Positions 1 to 15,785 of a stretch of 21,551 nt of DNA are shown in pieces (position 1 is the first letter of the stretch; every line of letters starts with the position of its first letter). The position numbers and the translations under genes were made by a program. This DNA is from a virus. The stretch spans positions 1 through 21,551 of the IMG/VR virus record IMGVR_UViG_3300044492_000111. The stretch is one strand, 5' to 3'. The notes under the pieces are model-generated. The model ran no database searches, was not told where the DNA came from, and saw only the letters and a program-made list of their open reading frames with translations.

Positions 1-800
1 GCACGCGGCGTCGAAGTCGCCGTCGAAGTCGCCGTCGCGTTCACGGCACCGTGAACATCGTCAGCCTCGCGCTCCTGCGTGAGGTGCTCCTCCAGATCCT
101 GCGAGAAGATGCCGCTCGACCGGGTGACCCCAATCACCGCGTCGATCTTGGCGCGCTTCTTCGCCATCTTCAGGACGGTGTTCTTCGTGCCCACGATGTC
201 CGGGTTCTCGACGCGCCCAATCTGTTGACTGGTGATCGCCGGGTCCGTGTCCGCGAACTTCGCTCCGCATCCGCCCTTGGTCTTCCAACACAACCAGCCG
301 CCGCCGTACTCGGCCTTGCCCCTGATGATGCCGTCCTTCTGGCACGAGGGGCAGACCCGCCGCGAGTCGCGCCAGCGGTACTTCGCCTCGAACGACGAGC
401 ACGACCCCAGTCCGGACCCGACAAACATCTCGTCGGTCTTGCGCACCAGTTCGCACTGGATGGTGTAGTCGAACAAGCCGCGATCGAAGTCTTCGACCTT
501 CGACAGGATGCGATACCGGTCGGCCAGTCCGTACACGTCGCACAGCTTCTCGGCCCCGGACTTCAGCAGCACCTTCTTCTGGCCTGCGCCGGGGATGATG
601 CCGTAGTCGCCACCGTCGGTGCCGCCGTCCTTCGACTCTTGCAAGTAGCCCGCGCAGAACTCCTGCAACTCCTCCATCCGCCGCTTGGCGAGTTGCACGT
701 TCATCACGGGCATCAGCACGACATCGCCCGGCGCTCGCCGCACCAGTGCGCGGCCGGTGTTGTCGTCCATCAGTTCCGCCTCCACCAGCGTCTGCGTCAA
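1..800 (-). CDS. Zinc-ribbon phage protein, possible recombination/ssDNA role (3' end outside window)
   Basis: About 266 residues are visible and the frame is still open at the window edge, so the C-terminus is missing. A zinc ribbon is seen at C150, C153, C171 and C178. Before it is a block around residues 64-92 (DYGIIPG, then SGAEKLCDVYGLADRY), and after it a Lys-rich stretch near 208-220 (NTVLKMAKKRAKIDAVIG). I recall this arrangement from a widespread phage and mobile-element family of unknown function that often lies among recombination genes; that link is recollection, not a search. The chosen start is TTG at 800, forming a TTGA overlap with the preceding stop and following GAGGTG; ATG at 770 is the alternative. 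The tail is a Thr/Ala/Ser repeat (NATATSTATST) containing a 12-base tandem repeat and one copy of the 16-base palindrome. Confidence 0.72.
   Translation of the reverse strand, partial: MTQTLVEAELMDDNTGRALVRRAPGDVVLMPVMNVQLAKRRMEELQEFCAGYLQESKDGGTDGGDYGIIPGAGQKKVLLKSGAEKLCDVYGLADRYRILSKVEDFDRGLFDYTIQCELVRKTDEMFVGSGLGSCSSFEAKYRWRDSRRVCPSCQKDGIIRGKAEYGGGWLCWKTKGGCGAKFADTDPAITSQQIGRVENPDIVGTKNTVLKMAKKRAKIDAVIGVTRSSGIFSQDLEEHLTQEREADDVHGAVNATATSTATSTPR
10..33. repeat. 12-base tandem repeat, two copies
   Basis: The unit GTCGAAGTCGCC occurs twice head to tail, with a partial third copy. It lies in the coding tail of the partial gene and encodes a repeating Ala-Thr-Ser-Thr pattern. It may be simple codon-level slippage. 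Confidence 0.7.
40..55. promoter_or_regulatory. 16-base palindrome, copy 1 (near-perfect)
   Basis: TTCACGGCACCGTGAA. Both 7-base arms are perfect and only the centre differs (CA instead of TA) from the copy at 21430-21445. It lies inside the reading frame of the partial gene. Candidate operator or other protein-binding site; function unknown. Confidence 0.5.
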
Positions 801-5771: not shown

Positions 5772-6043
5772 CGGTACTTCGTTCCTCGGCCTCGCCGCCG
5801 TGTCGGGGGCGCAGGCTCCACAAAGCGTTCGTTGATGAGTGAGGGCGGCGACGTGCTCCGGTCCACGTCGTAGCCGTAGATGGCGCAGGGGTAGCCGTTC
5901 TCCAGCGCGTCCCGTCGCGCCCCCTCCAGCGTCCCGGCACAACTCAGCACGGTCGCATCCTCGGTCCCCTCGGTAATCGCACGGGCGTCGTAGACGACGA
6001 ATATCTGATCTGCGTCTGGCTTACTTGAGTCTGTTCTACTCAT
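5768..6043 (-). CDS. Small conserved phage-type protein
   Basis: A 91-residue protein with FVVYDARAITEGTEDATVLS, then EGARRDALENGYPCAIYGYD, then LINERFVE and a basic tail. The pattern GTEDA, R..A, A.Y.YD, NE.F is one I associate with small phage proteins of unknown function. No catalytic motif. It starts at ATG 6043, with an ATGA overlap to the deaminase stop. A copy of the 16-base palindrome lies 7-22 bases upstream of this start, overlapping the expected ribosome-binding region, so the site could affect expression of this gene if it is bound or folds. Confidence 0.7.
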   Translation of the reverse strand: MSRTDSSKPDADQIFVVYDARAITEGTEDATVLSCAGTLEGARRDALENGYPCAIYGYDVDRSTSPPSLINERFVEPAPPTRRRGRGTKYR

Positions 6044-6510
6044 ATTCCGTTCACGGTACCGTGATGAAGTCCCAGCCGGTCGGCCCCCAGTGAGAGCGCG
6101 TGGAACCGGTGCGCGTCGTACCACTCCCAGCCGGTATCGTGGAACAGCCAGACGCCGGAGATACCCGACACCAGCAGGAGCTTGCTGCACTGCACACACG
6201 AGGGTGGCCCAGACGGCACCAGTCCGGCCGGGCCGATCTTGACGTGGGCACAGTCGGCGCTCCGCACTGTCCCGCCGGTCGCCAGCGCCAGCATCAGGGC
6301 TTGCTGTTCGGCGTGGACGGCCTCGACCCGGCACGTGGCCTTGCACGCCTCCGTGCCGTCGCAATCGAAGCCACGAGGCTTGAAGTTGTAGCCGTGCCCC
6401 ATGATGCGACTGTCGCGGAAGATGACCGCCCCGCGCTGGCTCCGACAGGGCGAGAGCTTCGCCATGCTGATCGCGAACTGGATGATGTCCTCCGGCGGCT
6501 GCTGCCTCAC
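6040..6510 (-). CDS. CMP/dCMP deaminase-like enzyme
   Basis: The 156-residue sequence carries the zinc-dependent deaminase motifs: HAE at 66-68 (catalytic Glu E68) and PSCVQC at 103-108 supplying the two zinc cysteines C105 and C108. An upstream RGAVIF strand and G.N motif (GHGYNFKP) fit the family. It probably deaminates deoxycytidylate or a related cytosine nucleotide, feeding thymidylate synthesis; RNA- or DNA-level activity cannot be excluded. Extra cysteines C50, C56 and C60 lie in an insertion of the kind some phage dCMP deaminases use for a second zinc, which is inference. Start GTG 6510 shares GTGA with the previous stop. The last residues are encoded by a palindrome copy. Confidence 0.86.
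   Translation of the reverse strand: MRQQPPEDIIQFAISMAKLSPCRSQRGAVIFRDSRIMGHGYNFKPRGFDCDGTEACKATCRVEAVHAEQQALMLALATGGTVRSADCAHVKIGPAGLVPSGPPSCVQCSKLLLVSGISGVWLFHDTGWEWYDAHRFHALSLGADRLGLHHGTVNGI
6050..6065. promoter_or_regulatory. 16-base palindrome, copy 2 (15 of 16)
   Basis: TTCACGGTACCGTGAT. It is identical to the perfect copy at 21430 over 15 bases. It lies at the 3' end of the deaminase gene and immediately before the start of the next gene. Confidence 0.55.
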
Positions 6511-6914
6511 AAGGCTTCCTTCGCAATGAAGTCGCACAGGAGCACCCACGCGTTATAGGCCGGGTGCAGTTCCTGCGGAGGGATGCGATTCGCGTTCAGC
6601 CACTGCGCGAGGTTGTTCGCCACCGCGACGGCTTTCTCGTGGGCCTCCGGCGTGGTCCTCAACTGCGCCAGCGCAAACTCCAGCCGCGCCACCTTCTCGC
6701 GCAGGCCGCACGCCGTGCAGGGCGGAGCCGTCGAGGTCTTCAGGCCACACATGCTGGCGAAGCCGAAGACCGGGTGATGCACCATCTCGCGATCCACGCG
6801 CACCTGACACCGGGGGCATTCCTCCATGTCGCCGTGCGACGTGGTCGGCCCCCCTTCGCAGGCTCGCTTTGGAATGAACTGCGTCACGAAGTTCAGGCTA
6901 TCGATCTCGGTCAT
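6507..6914 (-). CDS. Zinc-finger phage-type protein
   Basis: A 135-residue protein with two CxxC pairs, C33/C36 (CPRC) and C66/C69 (CTAC), separated by 29 residues that include VDREMVHHP. A helix-rich C-terminal half follows (LEFALAQLRTTPEAHEKAVA), ending LCDFIAKEAL. A structural zinc is likely; role unknown. The start at ATG 6914 gives a 17-base overlap with the upstream gene and has only a weak GGGAC upstream, consistent with translational coupling. Confidence 0.66.
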   Translation of the reverse strand: MTEIDSLNFVTQFIPKRACEGGPTTSHGDMEECPRCQVRVDREMVHHPVFGFASMCGLKTSTAPPCTACGLREKVARLEFALAQLRTTPEAHEKAVAVANNLAQWLNANRIPPQELHPAYNAWVLLCDFIAKEAL

Positions 6915-8839: not shown

Positions 8840-9634
8840 TTACGCGGCCTTGGCCGCAGCCAAGGACGCATTCAACATCGCCATCAGATCCACTGTTGCC
8901 GCCTGCGGCACCACGGCAGCGGGCACCGGCGCGGGCGCACCGTCCACGCGGCTCTGAATCAACGCCTTGACCGCCTCGGCGTAGCTGTCCGACTCCAGCA
9001 CCACGTCATCGAAACTGACGCGCTTGGCGTCCATCAGTTGCGCCATCAGGGCTAGATGCTGGGCGTTCGCCTGCTCCGGCACGGCCGCGTACTGGGGCAC
9101 GTCCGAGATGGTGCGGATGTCCGCGTGGTTGCGCAGGAAGTGCATTGCCAGCAGCTTGCCCGTGGACCGAATCACCACGACGCGCTCGCGGCCATACATG
9201 ACCACCTTGCCGACGGCCATCCGGTCCGCCAGCGCATCCCGGAAGGTGACGAACGTCGTGCTGTCCTTGCCGCCGGGCGACAGGTAGTAGACGGAGCCGT
9301 CGTAGTAGCTGTCCCCGACCGCGTCCTCTCCGACGTAGCCATCGACTTGCACGACGCCGAGACGGTCCGGGCGCAGCGCCTTCAGTTCATCCTCGGTGAA
9401 GGTCAGGAAGTTGCCGGGCGCGACTTCGTAGCCCTTGACCAGTTCGGCCTGCTGCACGTCGGCCGCGCACGTCTGGCACCGCTTCACCAGATTGATCGGC
9501 GTGCCGCACGCGCCGTGCACCTGTCGAAAGCTCACGCCTTCGGCCGGGTCGTTGATGGCCTTATAGACCTTGACCGGGAAGCCGAACAGGCCGAGGTTGA
9601 TGTCGAGATTCTGAAGTGAGCGCATCGAAGCCAT
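8840..9634 (-). CDS. ku: Ku DNA end-binding protein (bacterial type)
   Basis: A 264-residue protein of normal bacterial Ku length. Family signs are LDINLGLFGFPVKVYKAIND near the start (the Ku opening W.G.ISFGLV.IPVKLY.A), FRQVHGACGTPINL and RCQTCAADV, VKGYEVAPGNFLTFTEDEL, LKALRP, and VGKVVMYGRERVVVIRSTGK. The C-terminus VDLMAMLNASLAAAKAA matches the conserved bacterial end (DLM.AL..SL.AAK), but the basic tail of many bacterial Ku proteins is absent. Ku forms a ring dimer on DNA ends and recruits a ligase. Start ATG 9634 sits in a perfect GGAGACGACGATG cassette; an in-frame GTG at 9682 is less likely. It is first in the P4 unit, directly after the helicase. Phage Ku is known from mycobacteriophages Omega and Corndog. 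Confidence 0.93.
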   Translation of the reverse strand: MASMRSLQNLDINLGLFGFPVKVYKAINDPAEGVSFRQVHGACGTPINLVKRCQTCAADVQQAELVKGYEVAPGNFLTFTEDELKALRPDRLGVVQVDGYVGEDAVGDSYYDGSVYYLSPGGKDSTTFVTFRDALADRMAVGKVVMYGRERVVVIRSTGKLLAMHFLRNHADIRTISDVPQYAAVPEQANAQHLALMAQLMDAKRVSFDDVVLESDSYAEAVKALIQSRVDGAPAPVPAAVVPQAATVDLMAMLNASLAAAKAA

Positions 9635-9644
9635 CGTCGTCTCC
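9632..9644 (-). promoter_or_regulatory. Ribosome-binding cassette GGAGACGACGATG (ku)
   Basis: One of three identical 13-base copies in the window. GGAG is 6 bases before the ATG. It decides the ku start at 9634. Confidence 0.8.
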
Positions 9645-9771
9645 TGAAGGTTGCCGTCGTCACCGCCGCCGAAACGGGGCACCGTTGCGGCACCCGTGCT
9701 GGCGGTCGCGTTGCCGCCTCTCCGTTGGTGTCACCGGCCTCTGGTGTCGTCCACCGCCGACTGACACCTTA

Positions 9772-9800
9772 ATGGTAATCCCATTGTTCTCGTATGTCAA
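9772..9800 (-). promoter_or_regulatory. Promoter P4 (TTGACA-17-TACCAT), upstream of ku
   Basis: -35 TTGACA at 9800-9795, 17-base spacer ending CAATGGGAT, -10 TACCAT at 9777-9772. The helicase stop codon TGA (9799-9797) is inside the -35 box. The predicted leader to the ku ATG is about 130 bases, the longest in the window. I see no convincing gene in 9635-9771. Confidence 0.84.
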
Positions 9801-11005
9801 GGGCGACGGCGCTTGAATTTTCCGTCACCGAAGTAACGGTTGGTCAGGACTTTGGTCGCGCCGTTGGACTTCGACACCATCTCCCAGAGCGCGCCGTACG
9901 ACGAGGTGCCGCCGGGTTGCAGCCACAGGTCTTCGATGCGGCCGAACTGCCCCACCTGATCGACCATGTCCACGACCCATGCGGACGTCTTCGCCGGGTG
10001 CGGACGCAGGAGCCGCCCGACTTGCTGGTAGTAGAGCGCCAGCGAGATCGTCGGCCGCGCCAGCACCACCGTCTCCAGTTCCGGGTAGTCGAACCCGATG
10101 CCCAGCACGCCGACGTTCGCGACGACCTTGATCTCGCCTGCGCGGAACGCCGCGATGATCGCGGCTCGCACCTTGGGCTTCGTGTCGGACGTGACGACTG
10201 CCGTCCCCGCCACCTCGCTCGCCAGCCGGTCGGCATCCTCCACGAACCGGGTGAACACCAGCACGTTCTTCCGACCGACCTCCAGTAGCCGGAGCACGAC
10301 GCGCTTGACGCGATCGTTGAACCCAATCCGGTTGAAGTACCGCTTGATGGACTCGTCGGTGTAGTCCGCGCCGGTGGTGTTCACCTTGAGGTCGGCCGTC
10401 TTGAACCCCGAGACGATCTGGTATTCCGGCTTCACCAGATACCCGGCATCAATAAGGTCACCCACCTGTGCGTACGCCACGACTTCCCCGAACACGCGAG
10501 GCCGTGTGCGCGTGAGGAACTTCAACTGCGAGCCGCCATAGCCATCGGTGTGCAACCGGAACGGCGTGGCCGTCAGGCCCAGTACGCGCACCGCGCCCAT
10601 CGCCTCGATGAACTGCTGGTACATCCCGGCCTTCGCATTGACCAGATGCGCTTCGTCCACGATGACGTACGGCACATGGTCGAACAGACCGGGGTTGTCC
10701 TTCACGCTGCCGATGGTCGCGAGCGTGATGTCGCCAATCTCCTTCGTGCCCATCGATGCCGAATAGACCTTGGGGTCGTAGCCGTATGCGAGGAGCTTGT
10801 TCGCGTTCTGCTCCAGAATCTCTTTCGTCGGCTGAAAGATCAGGCACGGCCCGTCCAGCGCCTGCACGACGCCCGCAATGACAATCGACTTCCCGGCCCC
10901 GGTCGGCAGGACCACAAGCCCGCCACCGGAGTCCGGCTTGCCTTTCGTCAGGAAGTGGACGCTGCGAGCAATCGCATCCGCTTGGTAGTCGCGCGGCTGC
11001 AGCAT
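9797..11005 (-). CDS. DEAH-box superfamily 2 helicase
   Basis: A 402-residue protein with a complete helicase core. Walker A LPTGAGKS is at 33-40, DEAH at 117-120, motif III GLTATPFR at 143-150, and motif VI QQVGRLLRP at 327-335. Upstream RDYQADAI acts as the Q-like start (5-12). The single compact core resembles phage UvsW and bacterial RadD-type helicases that remodel branched DNA during recombination and replication; the exact substrate is not readable. It begins one base after the methyltransferase-like stop codon and is the last gene before P4, and its stop codon forms part of P4. Next to Ku it suggests DNA end or repair processing. Confidence 0.9.
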   Translation of the reverse strand: MLQPRDYQADAIARSVHFLTKGKPDSGGGLVVLPTGAGKSIVIAGVVQALDGPCLIFQPTKEILEQNANKLLAYGYDPKVYSASMGTKEIGDITLATIGSVKDNPGLFDHVPYVIVDEAHLVNAKAGMYQQFIEAMGAVRVLGLTATPFRLHTDGYGGSQLKFLTRTRPRVFGEVVAYAQVGDLIDAGYLVKPEYQIVSGFKTADLKVNTTGADYTDESIKRYFNRIGFNDRVKRVVLRLLEVGRKNVLVFTRFVEDADRLASEVAGTAVVTSDTKPKVRAAIIAAFRAGEIKVVANVGVLGIGFDYPELETVVLARPTISLALYYQQVGRLLRPHPAKTSAWVVDMVDQVGQFGRIEDLWLQPGGTSSYGALWEMVSKSNGATKVLTNRYFGDGKFKRRRP

Positions 11006-11926
11006 TTACGCGCCCGCCGCTGCTGCTGCGACCAGACGTTTCCGTGACGGAGGTCGCAGGAACGACAGACCCTGCTGCAGTTCCGGGCGACCGTAGCACG
11101 CCACGTATCGCCGCATCATGTGCGCGATTTCCATGCTGTCGAGCGCGGCCTTGTGCTCGCGATACCAGCGCCAGAAGGGCACCGCCCACTTCACGTACGG
11201 CGACTGCACCGTGTCATCGCAGAGCACATCGAGATCGCACCCGACGATCTGCTTCGCCATCGGATGATCGAGCCAGTGCAACCGCGACTCCATGCCTTGC
11301 AGTAGCTGGGCGCGCATGATGTCTTCGTTCCAACACTCGACCGTCCGCACCATGCCGTCGGCCAGTCCGCGCAACGGCACGACCGTCTGGTGGAACGTCG
11401 ATTCGCCGTCGCCCTGCCAGATGTCGAACAGGCCCCACGTGAAGAACGACTCGCGCGCCTTCAGGTACTTGAACAGGTCCGCCTTCACGATCGTGAGCTT
11501 TGACGGGTCCGGCACCTTCGCCAGCGTGGCCTCCCACACCAGATTGATAATGTGCTGGCTCCGCTCGACCACGACGATCTGCTTGACGCGCGGCCGGTGC
11601 GCCAGTGCGACCGCCGCGTAGCCGACGCCCAGCCCGCCCACCAGCACGCGCCCGGACGCCTTCTGAATCAGGTCGTCCATCTGCCGCTGCTCGATGGGGA
11701 GATCGGTCATCCAGACGCCGCGCTTCTCCTCGCTCAGTTCGTGCCAGCGCGTCTCGTGCGGGTAGCACAACGCCTCACCGCGCTGCCCGAACACCACCGT
11801 CCGCATGTTGTCGGAGCGCATCGCTTTCCCGGCTGGCTCGATCCGGTAACTGATCCGCACCGGCCCGGACTCGCCCTCGGGAATATCGAGCACGTGGTCG
11901 TACCACCGCTTGCGCCCGGCCCTCAT
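11006..11926 (-). CDS. Rossmann-fold SAM-dependent methyltransferase-like protein
   Basis: A 306-residue protein. Residues 93-108 (RVLVGGLGVGYAAVAL) form the Gly-rich loop and helix that bind S-adenosylmethionine, VVVERS with E121 is the acidic strand 2, and KADLFKYL with D150 the next conserved acid. WGLFDIWQGD at 164-173 fits the spermidine-synthase-like methyltransferase group, but no DPPY-type DNA-methylation motif is present, so DNA methylation is unlikely. The target is unknown. The C-terminal third is helical with an Ala tail. ATG 11926 shares ATGA with the previous gene, and the helicase follows at once. Confidence 0.75.
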   Translation of the reverse strand: MRAGRKRWYDHVLDIPEGESGPVRISYRIEPAGKAMRSDNMRTVVFGQRGEALCYPHETRWHELSEEKRGVWMTDLPIEQRQMDDLIQKASGRVLVGGLGVGYAAVALAHRPRVKQIVVVERSQHIINLVWEATLAKVPDPSKLTIVKADLFKYLKARESFFTWGLFDIWQGDGESTFHQTVVPLRGLADGMVRTVECWNEDIMRAQLLQGMESRLHWLDHPMAKQIVGCDLDVLCDDTVQSPYVKWAVPFWRWYREHKAALDSMEIAHMMRRYVACYGRPELQQGLSFLRPPSRKRLVAAAAAGA

Positions 11927-14618: not shown

Positions 14619-15785
14619 TTACTCCTCGGCCTCTCCGGCCAGATGATCCGTTTCAAATTTCTTCATCATCGGGTGCCTCGGCTTGTTGCTCCCGCGCACG
14701 CGCTGCTGGCATTCGACCACCAGCCGCCGCCCGATGTAGGCGTCCGGGTTCGCCACGGTCGCCGCCAGTAGTTCGCTGTTCCGGTTCTTGCAACGGCCCT
14801 TCGTGCCGTCATCGAACCGCACCAGCACGACCGCCGTCGGGCCGAACGACCCGGCTTCGAATCCGGTCACGGTCACCGTGTGCTGTTCCAGTCGCTTCAC
14901 CTTGAGCCAGTCCGCCGACCGGTGCCCCGGCCGATACTTACTGGACAGCTTCTTGAGAATGACCCCTTCACCCCCGTTGGCCCAGATGGCTTTGACCCCG
15001 TCCCATGACGGAGCTTGCTGGGCCACCACGCACACCGCGTTACCGGGCACGTGCTGGCCTGCCATCAGCAGGAGCGCCCGCCGGTCCACCAGTGGAAGGT
15101 GAATCACCGACTGGCCCATCACTTCCACGAGGTCGAACATCGCGAACACCAGTTCATCCCGGAGCGACAGATTTGGCACGTCGGTCGAGATGCCACCGGG
15201 CACGAGGAGTTCGCCATCGTAGACACCATCCGGCATCGCCGCGAGGTCCGCAAGTATCTGAGAAGGGAGAGAAGGAATCGATCGGAGCGTCGTGCTGACC
15301 ACGCCGTCCGCTTTGGTCACCAAGCAGCGATGGCCGTCGAGTTTCTCGTCCATCGTCCACTCGCCCGTGCCGAACGCCGCGTCGAATTTCGCCGGGACCA
15401 TGAAGCCCTCGACGTCGAACAGGTGGCCGAACTTGCCTTCCACCATCGCACTGGCCTTCATCGCGTCGAGTTCGCCTGCCGTCGTCACCGCCGTCGCCAC
15501 CGTCACCGCCTCCTCAGGGCGCATCGCCCCGACACCTTTAATGATAGTGGCAATCGAAGACGAAGTCAACTCCACATCTGGAGTCGCCGCGAACACGTAG
15601 CCGCCGCGCTCCTCCACGATCAGGCCGTGTCGCTCGACCACATCGCGCGTGTGCGAGCACCAGTGCGACCGGCCGCGCCCGGCCAGCAGCCAGCCTTTGC
15701 ACTCGCACCCGAGTAACCCGTTGTCCGCCAGCGTGACGACGTAGACGGCATCACTCGACAGAGAGTCATATCGCCACGTGGTCAC
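14619..15785 (-). CDS. SWIM zinc finger fused to ATP-dependent DNA ligase
   Basis: A 388-residue fusion. Residues 1-70 carry a SWIM zinc finger, C27-x-C29-x13-C43-x-H45. Residues ~88-388 form an ATP-dependent ligase: motif I KLDG at 148-151 (adenylated K148), FAMFDL at 214-219, DGELLVP at 190-196, EGVILKK at 273-279 and WLKVK at 293-297, then an OB-fold-like end. It should seal nicks or joined ends. The frame opens at GTG 15785 (GTGA overlap), but promoter P6 lies in the linker and an in-frame ATG at 15524 follows AAAGGTGTCGGGGCG. A shorter 301-residue ligase without the finger may therefore also be made. It is the natural partner of the phage Ku. Confidence 0.9.
   Translation of the reverse strand: MTTWRYDSLSSDAVYVVTLADNGLLGCECKGWLLAGRGRSHWCSHTRDVVERHGLIVEERGGYVFAATPDVELTSSSIATIIKGVGAMRPEEAVTVATAVTTAGELDAMKASAMVEGKFGHLFDVEGFMVPAKFDAAFGTGEWTMDEKLDGHRCLVTKADGVVSTTLRSIPSLPSQILADLAAMPDGVYDGELLVPGGISTDVPNLSLRDELVFAMFDLVEVMGQSVIHLPLVDRRALLLMAGQHVPGNAVCVVAQQAPSWDGVKAIWANGGEGVILKKLSSKYRPGHRSADWLKVKRLEQHTVTVTGFEAGSFGPTAVVLVRFDDGTKGRCKNRNSELLAATVANPDAYIGRRLVVECQQRVRGSNKPRHPMMKKFETDHLAGEAEE
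15541..15569 (-). promoter_or_regulatory. Promoter P6 (TTGACT-17-TATCAT) inside the ligase fusion
   Basis: -35 TTGACT at 15569-15564, 17-base spacer ending CGATTGCCAC, -10 TATCAT at 15546-15541. The same bases encode linker residues ELTSSSIATIIK. The predicted start point (about 15534) is 10 bases before an in-frame ATG, giving a separate message for the ligase core and downstream genes. Confidence 0.8.

What the first reader, a model, noticed from the sequence alone, without database searches (positions are those of the whole stretch)
8840..9800. Phage-type genome encodes its own bacterial Ku behind a dedicated promoter
Seen: a 264-residue protein with Ku opening, LKALRP and VVVIRSTGK blocks and a conserved DLM..L..SL.AAK end, just behind promoter P4. 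Known: Ku is rare in phages; mycobacteriophages Omega and Corndog carry it and use it with host LigD to circularise short cos ends. Here the basic C-terminal tail is absent, so contact with a host ligase may differ. Inference: this phage may use Ku for genome circularisation or repair.
Basis: partly seen in the sequence, partly recalled or inferred. Interest (0 to 1): 0.72.

Follow-up and report, generated by a model that had tools for sequence, protein, structure and literature searches.

The report
Phage carrying Ku and DNA ligase
A group of uncultured bacterial viruses carries its own copy of Ku, a protein that grips broken DNA ends, together with its own DNA ligase, so these viruses may be able to rejoin or circularise DNA without borrowing the host's repair ligase as the known Ku-carrying phages do.

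Summary
The Ku gene is real. Window 8840-9634(-) encodes 264 aa that pass Pfam PF02735 (93 bits) and the NCBIfam bacterial-Ku equivalog cut-off (167 vs 150). It models with pLDDT 91 onto DNA-bound M. tuberculosis Ku (Z 18.8). It lies in a tailed phage: a 122-kb relative with matching ends (Ku 91% identical) and an 83-kb relative (60%) carry portal, capsid and tape-measure genes and the same Ku neighbourhood. The promoter is real and conserved.

Its best matches are NHEJ (LigD/LigC-type) ligases. No LigD nuclease or polymerase domain was found. Two unrelated Ku-bearing phage contigs also carry a ligase; in one, Ku and ligase overlap as an operon. Three cultivated Ku mycobacteriophages checked whole have none.

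Best reading: a phage-borne Ku + stand-alone ligase end-joining pair, for circularisation or break repair (about 0.6). Pairing and function are inferred. This is a new variant of a known kind.

The parts
8840..9634 (-). Ku, 264 aa, beta-barrel core (residues ~12-177) plus minimal C-terminus, no extended basic tail
   Evidence: PF02735 93 bits; TIGR02772 over cut-off; AlphaFold pLDDT 91, Z 18.8 to Mtb Ku-DNA 9i91; dN/dS 0.13 against G001
9772..9800 (-). sigma70-like promoter 'P4' TTGACA-N17-TACCAT, 137 nt before the Ku ATG
   Evidence: one of 6 conserved sites, 0 on the other strand; same-family site before Ku in G001 (94805+) and L015 (9907+)
14619..15785 (-). ATP-dependent DNA ligase, 388 aa: SWIM-type zinc finger (res. 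~1-55), linker, nucleotidyltransferase (139-297), OB-like C-terminal part
   Evidence: PF01068 57 bits; motifs I KLDGHR, III DGE, IIIa FD, IV EGV, V KVK: key residues invariant in 5 phage ligases; best PDB hits Mtb LigD ligase domain; best NCBIfam model TIGR02779 NHEJ ligase, below its cut-off
15606..15785 (-). SWIM-like domain of the ligase (C27-x-C29 ... C43-x-H45)
   Evidence: invariant in 3 phages; BLASTP homology to the PF04434-positive SWIM domain of the G002 PrimPol, E 7e-7; dN/dS about 0.14
15541..15569 (-). promoter-like site of the same family inside the ligase ORF, just after the SWIM domain
   Evidence: conserved position in window, G001 (89200+) and L015 (2364+)
9797..11005 (-). 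SF2 helicase (RadD-like) directly upstream of Ku
   Evidence: PF04851/PF00271; best NCBIfam RadD/YejH 192 bits, below cut-off; present at this place in G001 and G002
11006..11926 (-). methyltransferase-like protein, part of the conserved Ku neighbourhood
   Evidence: phrog_15480; 55% identical protein in G002

Best explanation
The phage encodes a bacterial-type Ku that, as a homodimer, threads onto double-strand DNA ends and brings them together, and its own stand-alone ATP-dependent ligase that seals them: a minimal two-component end-joining system without the LigD polymerase and phosphoesterase modules. It most likely serves the infecting phage DNA itself, by circularising or protecting its ends after entry and mending breaks made by host nucleases. 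Shown: Ku identity and predicted fold, ligase identity with intact catalytic motifs, phage origin, purifying selection on both, conserved promoter, no LigD-type accessory domain found. Inferred: that this Ku and this ligase act together, that the SWIM domain brings the ligase to DNA or partners, and the purpose.
For: Ku. Ligase. Phage origin: portal, protease, major capsid, tape measure, tail fibres and primase in the 122-kb relative G001, terminase large-subunit match, colinear G002 with capsid protein 85% identical. Both genes conserved in G001 and G002 under purifying selection (dN/dS 0.13 and 0.17). The same gene pair occurs in two other Ku contigs, G005 (2.9 kb apart) and G007; in G007 Ku stop and ligase start overlap, with portal and capsid genes on the contig. 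Three cultivated Ku mycobacteriophages have no such ligase. No LigD_N or LigD Prim-Pol domain in any of the 15 records. For Mtb Ku the minimal C-terminus suffices to stimulate ligation, while the extended tail is tied to the LigD polymerase domain (PMC9638933); this phage Ku has the first and lacks the second, and its ligase lacks the polymerase domain.
Against: Ku and ligase are 5 kb apart with separate promoters in this lineage, so co-function rests on co-occurrence, not on an operon. ATP-dependent ligases are common in large phages for replication. Only one other lineage (G007) has a true Ku-ligase operon. G005 has a ligase and a tailed Ku; G006 has a nearly tail-less Ku and no ligase found, so tail and ligase do not correlate perfectly. 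The ligase model was poor (pLDDT 47). No biochemical data.
Confidence: 0.6

Rival explanations
1. The phage Ku works as in mycobacteriophages Omega and Corndog: it recruits the host's LigD to circularise a genome with very short cohesive ends, and the phage ligase is only a replication ligase.
For: Known precedent (Pitcher et al. 2006, cited in PMC7719229, PMC3706429 and PMC4351075). The minimal C-terminus DLMAMLNASL is conserved, and in Mtb the Ku core also binds LigD.
Against: The extended tail critical for Ku-LigD interaction in Mtb is missing. The phage carries its own ligase whose closest models and solved structures are NHEJ ligases. The host is unknown and may lack LigD.
Confidence: 0.2
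2. Ku is an end protector (like Mu Gam): it shields linear phage DNA from host exonucleases, and joining is incidental.
For: Mu Gam, a Ku relative in a phage, protects DNA ends (PMC1378119). A RadD-like repair helicase sits next to Ku.
Against: The protein is bacterial-type Ku with the ligation-stimulating minimal C-terminus, not Gam. A ligase accompanies Ku in three Ku-bearing lineages.
Confidence: 0.17
3. The contig is bacterial chromosome or a prophage remnant with ordinary NHEJ genes.
For: Ku is common in bacterial genomes (454 relatives in the capped scan).
Against: The same locus lies in a 122-kb record with matching ends and a full set of virion genes, and in a colinear 83-kb record. 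No tyrosine integrase in the window, G001 or G002. Ku is only about 30% identical to bacterial Ku and sits on a long separate branch.
Confidence: 0.02

Closest known systems
Ku of mycobacteriophages, cluster J (Omega, WXIN, Dove) and cluster O (Corndog, Catdawg)
   Same: Phage-encoded bacterial-type Ku of about the same length; the window Ku matches the phage Ku family PHROG 4873; 24-31% identity
   Different: Those have a basic or Lsr2-like tail and no PF01068 ligase in the three records checked whole (Lsr2 tail already described in PMC3706429). The window Ku does not group with them in the tree.
Bacterial two-component NHEJ, Ku + LigD (M. tuberculosis, B. subtilis)
   Same: Ku core fold and minimal C-terminus; ligase domain nearest to LigD/LigC-type ligases
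   Different: No polymerase or phosphoesterase domain on the ligase or elsewhere in the records; ligase carries a SWIM-type finger; Ku lacks the extended tail
Mu Gam
   Same: Phage DNA-end binder related to Ku; reported to promote joining with a host ligase (cited in PMC8136500)
   Different: The window protein is a true bacterial-type Ku by curated model
Phage replication ligases (SPO1, SPbeta and others)
   Same: ATP-dependent ligase core; 24-29% identity
   Different: None of the hosts or phages listed for this ligase overlaps with the Ku-positive records; in the listed matches the alignment begins after residue 106, so the N-terminal SWIM-type part is not shared

Membership tests
Bacterial Ku (PF02735 / TIGR02772) | Curated profile score over cut-off | tested here: met
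   93.3 bits vs 25; 166.9 vs 150
Bacterial Ku (PF02735 / TIGR02772) | Ku ring/beta-barrel fold | tested here: met
   pLDDT 91; Z 18.8, 2.4 A over 223 residues to 9i91
Bacterial Ku (PF02735 / TIGR02772) | Conserved minimal C-terminus (DL..L..S) | tested here: met
   DLMAMLNAS present
Bacterial Ku (PF02735 / TIGR02772) | Extended basic C-terminal tail (usual, not universal, so not defining) | tested here: not met
   7-residue tail, 1 K/R; a few bacterial Ku are also tail-less, e.g. L039 and L085
Bacterial Ku (PF02735 / TIGR02772) | Homodimer binding double-strand DNA ends | not testable with these tools
   needs protein
Omega/Corndog-type phage circularisation by Ku | Short (4-base) cohesive virion ends | not testable with these tools
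   metagenome assemblies; G001 assembled as a circle with 126-bp overlap
Omega/Corndog-type phage circularisation by Ku | Reliance on host LigD | not testable with these tools
   host unknown
NHEJ ligase LIG domain (LigD/LigC type, TIGR02779) | Score over the curated equivalog cut-off | tested here: not met
   best-scoring NCBIfam model, but 77.9 bits vs 227.75
NHEJ ligase LIG domain (LigD/LigC type, TIGR02779) | Intact ATP-dependent ligase motifs I, III, IIIa, IV, V | tested here: met
   K148-D150-G151-R153, D190-G-E192, F217-D218, E273-G-V275, K295/K297 invariant in five phage ligases
LigD | Phosphoesterase and polymerase domains | tested here: not met
   no PF13298 or PF21686 match in the window or relatives
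SWIM zinc finger (PF04434), ligase N-terminus | CxC...CxH pattern and profile match | tested here: inconclusive
   pattern invariant in three phages and homology to a PF04434-positive domain, but no direct PF04434 hit on the ligase

The most novel reading that the evidence does not exclude
Uncultured phage lineages encode a self-sufficient, host-LigD-independent end-joining system: a tail-less Ku plus a stand-alone (here SWIM-fused) ATP-dependent ligase, used to circularise or repair incoming phage DNA. A conserved promoter inside the ligase gene may also make a shorter, SWIM-less ligase.
Probability: 0.45. Interest if true: 0.7.

Novelty: new variant of a known kind. Interest (0 to 1): 0.55.

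Why it matters
Phage Ku is known mainly from cultivated mycobacteriophages that are thought to borrow the host's LigD. A phage that brings both Ku and ligase could perform end joining in hosts without NHEJ. That would give a route to circularise or mend cut phage DNA (for example after restriction or CRISPR cleavage), a possible source of horizontally spread NHEJ genes, and a two-protein toolkit for end joining in bacteria. No report of a phage-encoded Ku-ligase pair was found in the held literature, which excludes most subscription papers.

Tried and rejected
Bacterial chromosome or host contamination: rejected by the virion genes of G001 and colinear G002. 'Bacteriophage sp.' MT838252 as a further Ku phage: rejected, its ORFs (Ku, a formamidopyrimidine-glycosylase-like protein, a Clp-like N-terminus) read as an actinobacterial chromosome fragment (the last two named by eye). 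LigD-type polymerase/phosphoesterase elsewhere in the phages: none found. Prim-Pol (PF09250) as a third NHEJ part: present in G002 (SWIM-fused, just before the ligase), G005 and the mycobacteriophages, but not in the window or G001, so probably a replication protein. Ligase structure prediction: too few relatives, pLDDT 47, not used. Single-protein scans for close relatives found one Ku locus in viral contigs and none in bacterial genomes. Origin of the window Ku: the tree places it on a long branch next to other phage Ku with weak support (93/49 with L020), and phage Ku arose or moved several times; no donor can be named. Terminase: not hit by PF03354 in G001, found as a weak Terminase_6 match at the contig start. 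Cos ends: not testable. Defence-system library: no hit for Ku or ligase.

Full report
OBSERVATION. It is a bacterial-type Ku by three libraries (PF02735, 93 bits; PHROG 4873; TIGR02772 equivalog, 166.9 over the cut-off of 150), by similarity to solved B. subtilis and M. tuberculosis Ku, and by fold: the AlphaFold model (mean pLDDT 91) aligns to DNA-bound Mtb Ku with Z 18.8, 2.4 A over 223 residues, and to eukaryotic Ku at Z near 16.

PROMOTER. 'P4' is TTGACA-N17-TACCAT at 9800-9772(-), overlapping the end of the helicase gene. Six such sites lie on the coding strand of the window and none on the other; a Markov model of the window gives 0.003 per strand, and the independent consensus scan also ranks five of these six highest. 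The pattern was fitted after seeing the sites, so the number is only indicative, but the family recurs in G001 (10 sites on the coding strand, none on the other) and in the G002 locus L015. One precedes Ku in all three. Ku is the first of a run of same-direction genes, so 'dedicated' is an overstatement.

PHAGE ORIGIN. The window is a 21.5-kb virus record. A scan of viral contigs found a 122,115-bp record, G001, with Ku 91% identical and identical 126-bp ends, most simply a circular assembly. G001 encodes portal, head protease, major capsid, tape-measure, tail-fibre and primase proteins and a weak terminase large-subunit match. A second relative, G002 (83 kb; Ku 60%), is largely colinear with G001: major capsid 85%, portal 65%, helicase 76% in the best segment, Ku 60%, ligase 37%. 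No tyrosine integrase was seen in the three.

THE MISSED PARTNER. At 14619-15785(-) the phage encodes an ATP-dependent DNA ligase (PF01068, 57 bits). The key residues of the motifs KLDGHR, DGE, FD, EGV and KVK are invariant across five phage ligases. Its best solved relatives are led by the Mtb LigD ligase domain, and its best NCBIfam model is the NHEJ ligase TIGR02779, though far below that model's cut-off, so I call it NHEJ-like, not an NHEJ ligase. Its first ~55 residues carry a CxC...CxH pattern conserved in three phages and are homologous to a SWIM-positive N-terminus of a Prim-Pol encoded just before the ligase in G002. dN/dS is about 0.13 for Ku, 0.17 for the ligase and 0.14 for its SWIM part.

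CO-OCCURRENCE. Of 15 Ku-bearing records examined, five carry a PF01068 ligase: the window, G001, G002, G005 and G007. Window, G001 and G002 are one lineage, so this is three independent cases. Distances from Ku are about 5 kb (window, G001), 7 kb (G002) and 3 kb (G005), and in G007 the ligase start overlaps the Ku stop, on a contig with portal and capsid genes. WXIN, Catdawg and Dove, searched whole, have none. No LigD phosphoesterase or polymerase domain was found in any. Several of the other records are fragments, so absence there is weak.

C-TERMINUS. The window lineage and G007 have the minimal Ku C-terminus but a tail of only 5-9 residues; most bacterial Ku and all the mycobacteriophage Ku examined have basic or Lsr2-like tails. 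In Mtb the minimal C-terminus stimulates ligation, the Ku core contacts the ligase domain, and the extended tail is tied to the LigD polymerase domain (PMC9638933). A tail-less Ku with a polymerase-less ligase fits that division, but G005 (tail and ligase) and G006 (short tail, no ligase found) are exceptions.

PHYLOGENY. In a 61-sequence tree the window, G001 and G002 Ku form one fully supported clade on a long branch, apart from the mycobacteriophage Ku, which fall among actinobacterial Ku. The phage label needs at least five changes, so phages gained Ku repeatedly. Long branches make the deeper placement unsafe.

MECHANISM AND VERDICT. The best-supported account is a phage-borne Ku plus stand-alone ligase that holds and seals DNA ends, for circularisation or repair of the phage genome. 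Ku identity, ligase identity, phage origin, conservation and promoter are shown; partnership and purpose are inferred. Rivals are recruitment of host LigD as in Omega/Corndog, and end protection as in Mu Gam. Phage Ku itself is known (81 cultivated mycobacteriophage records; PMC11936186 also lists Streptomyces phage BillNye). A phage Ku-ligase pair was not found in the held papers. I therefore rate it a new variant of a known kind.

Noticed in passing
window 15569-15541(-); G001 89200+; L015 2364+: A promoter of the phage family lies inside the ligase ORF just after the SWIM domain in all three phages, followed in L015 by AGGAGG and an ATG: a shorter, SWIM-less ligase may be made. A terminator-like hairpin overlaps it in the window.
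   Followed up: partly
L015:1020-1832(+) (G002): Prim-Pol fused to a SWIM zinc finger, directly before the SWIM-ligase; absent from the window and G001.
   Followed up: partly
G007, L126:9522-11185(-): Ku and a 286-aa LigC-like ligase overlap as an operon in an unrelated phage contig that also has a tyrosine integrase.
   Followed up: partly
G007, L125:8211-11573(-): A 1120-aa protein in the structural-gene region contains a PF01068 ligase-like domain; function unclear.
   Followed up: no
MT838252.1 (L013): Record labelled 'Bacteriophage sp.' reads as an actinobacterial chromosome fragment with an ordinary Ku.
   Followed up: partly
window 9797-11005(-): RadD-like SF2 helicase immediately upstream of Ku, kept in all three phages; could be part of a repair module.
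   Followed up: partly
window 6040-6549(-): dCMP-deaminase-like protein.
   Followed up: no
window 3-800(-): Cut-off conserved protein of phrog_10048 (unknown function), 62% identical in G001 versus G002.
   Followed up: no
L004:15339-16283(+) (G001): Phosphoadenosine phosphosulfate reductase-like gene.
   Followed up: no
L011 and L014, C-terminus of Ku: Omega-type Ku ends in an Lsr2-like tail; already described in PMC3706429.
   Followed up: yes
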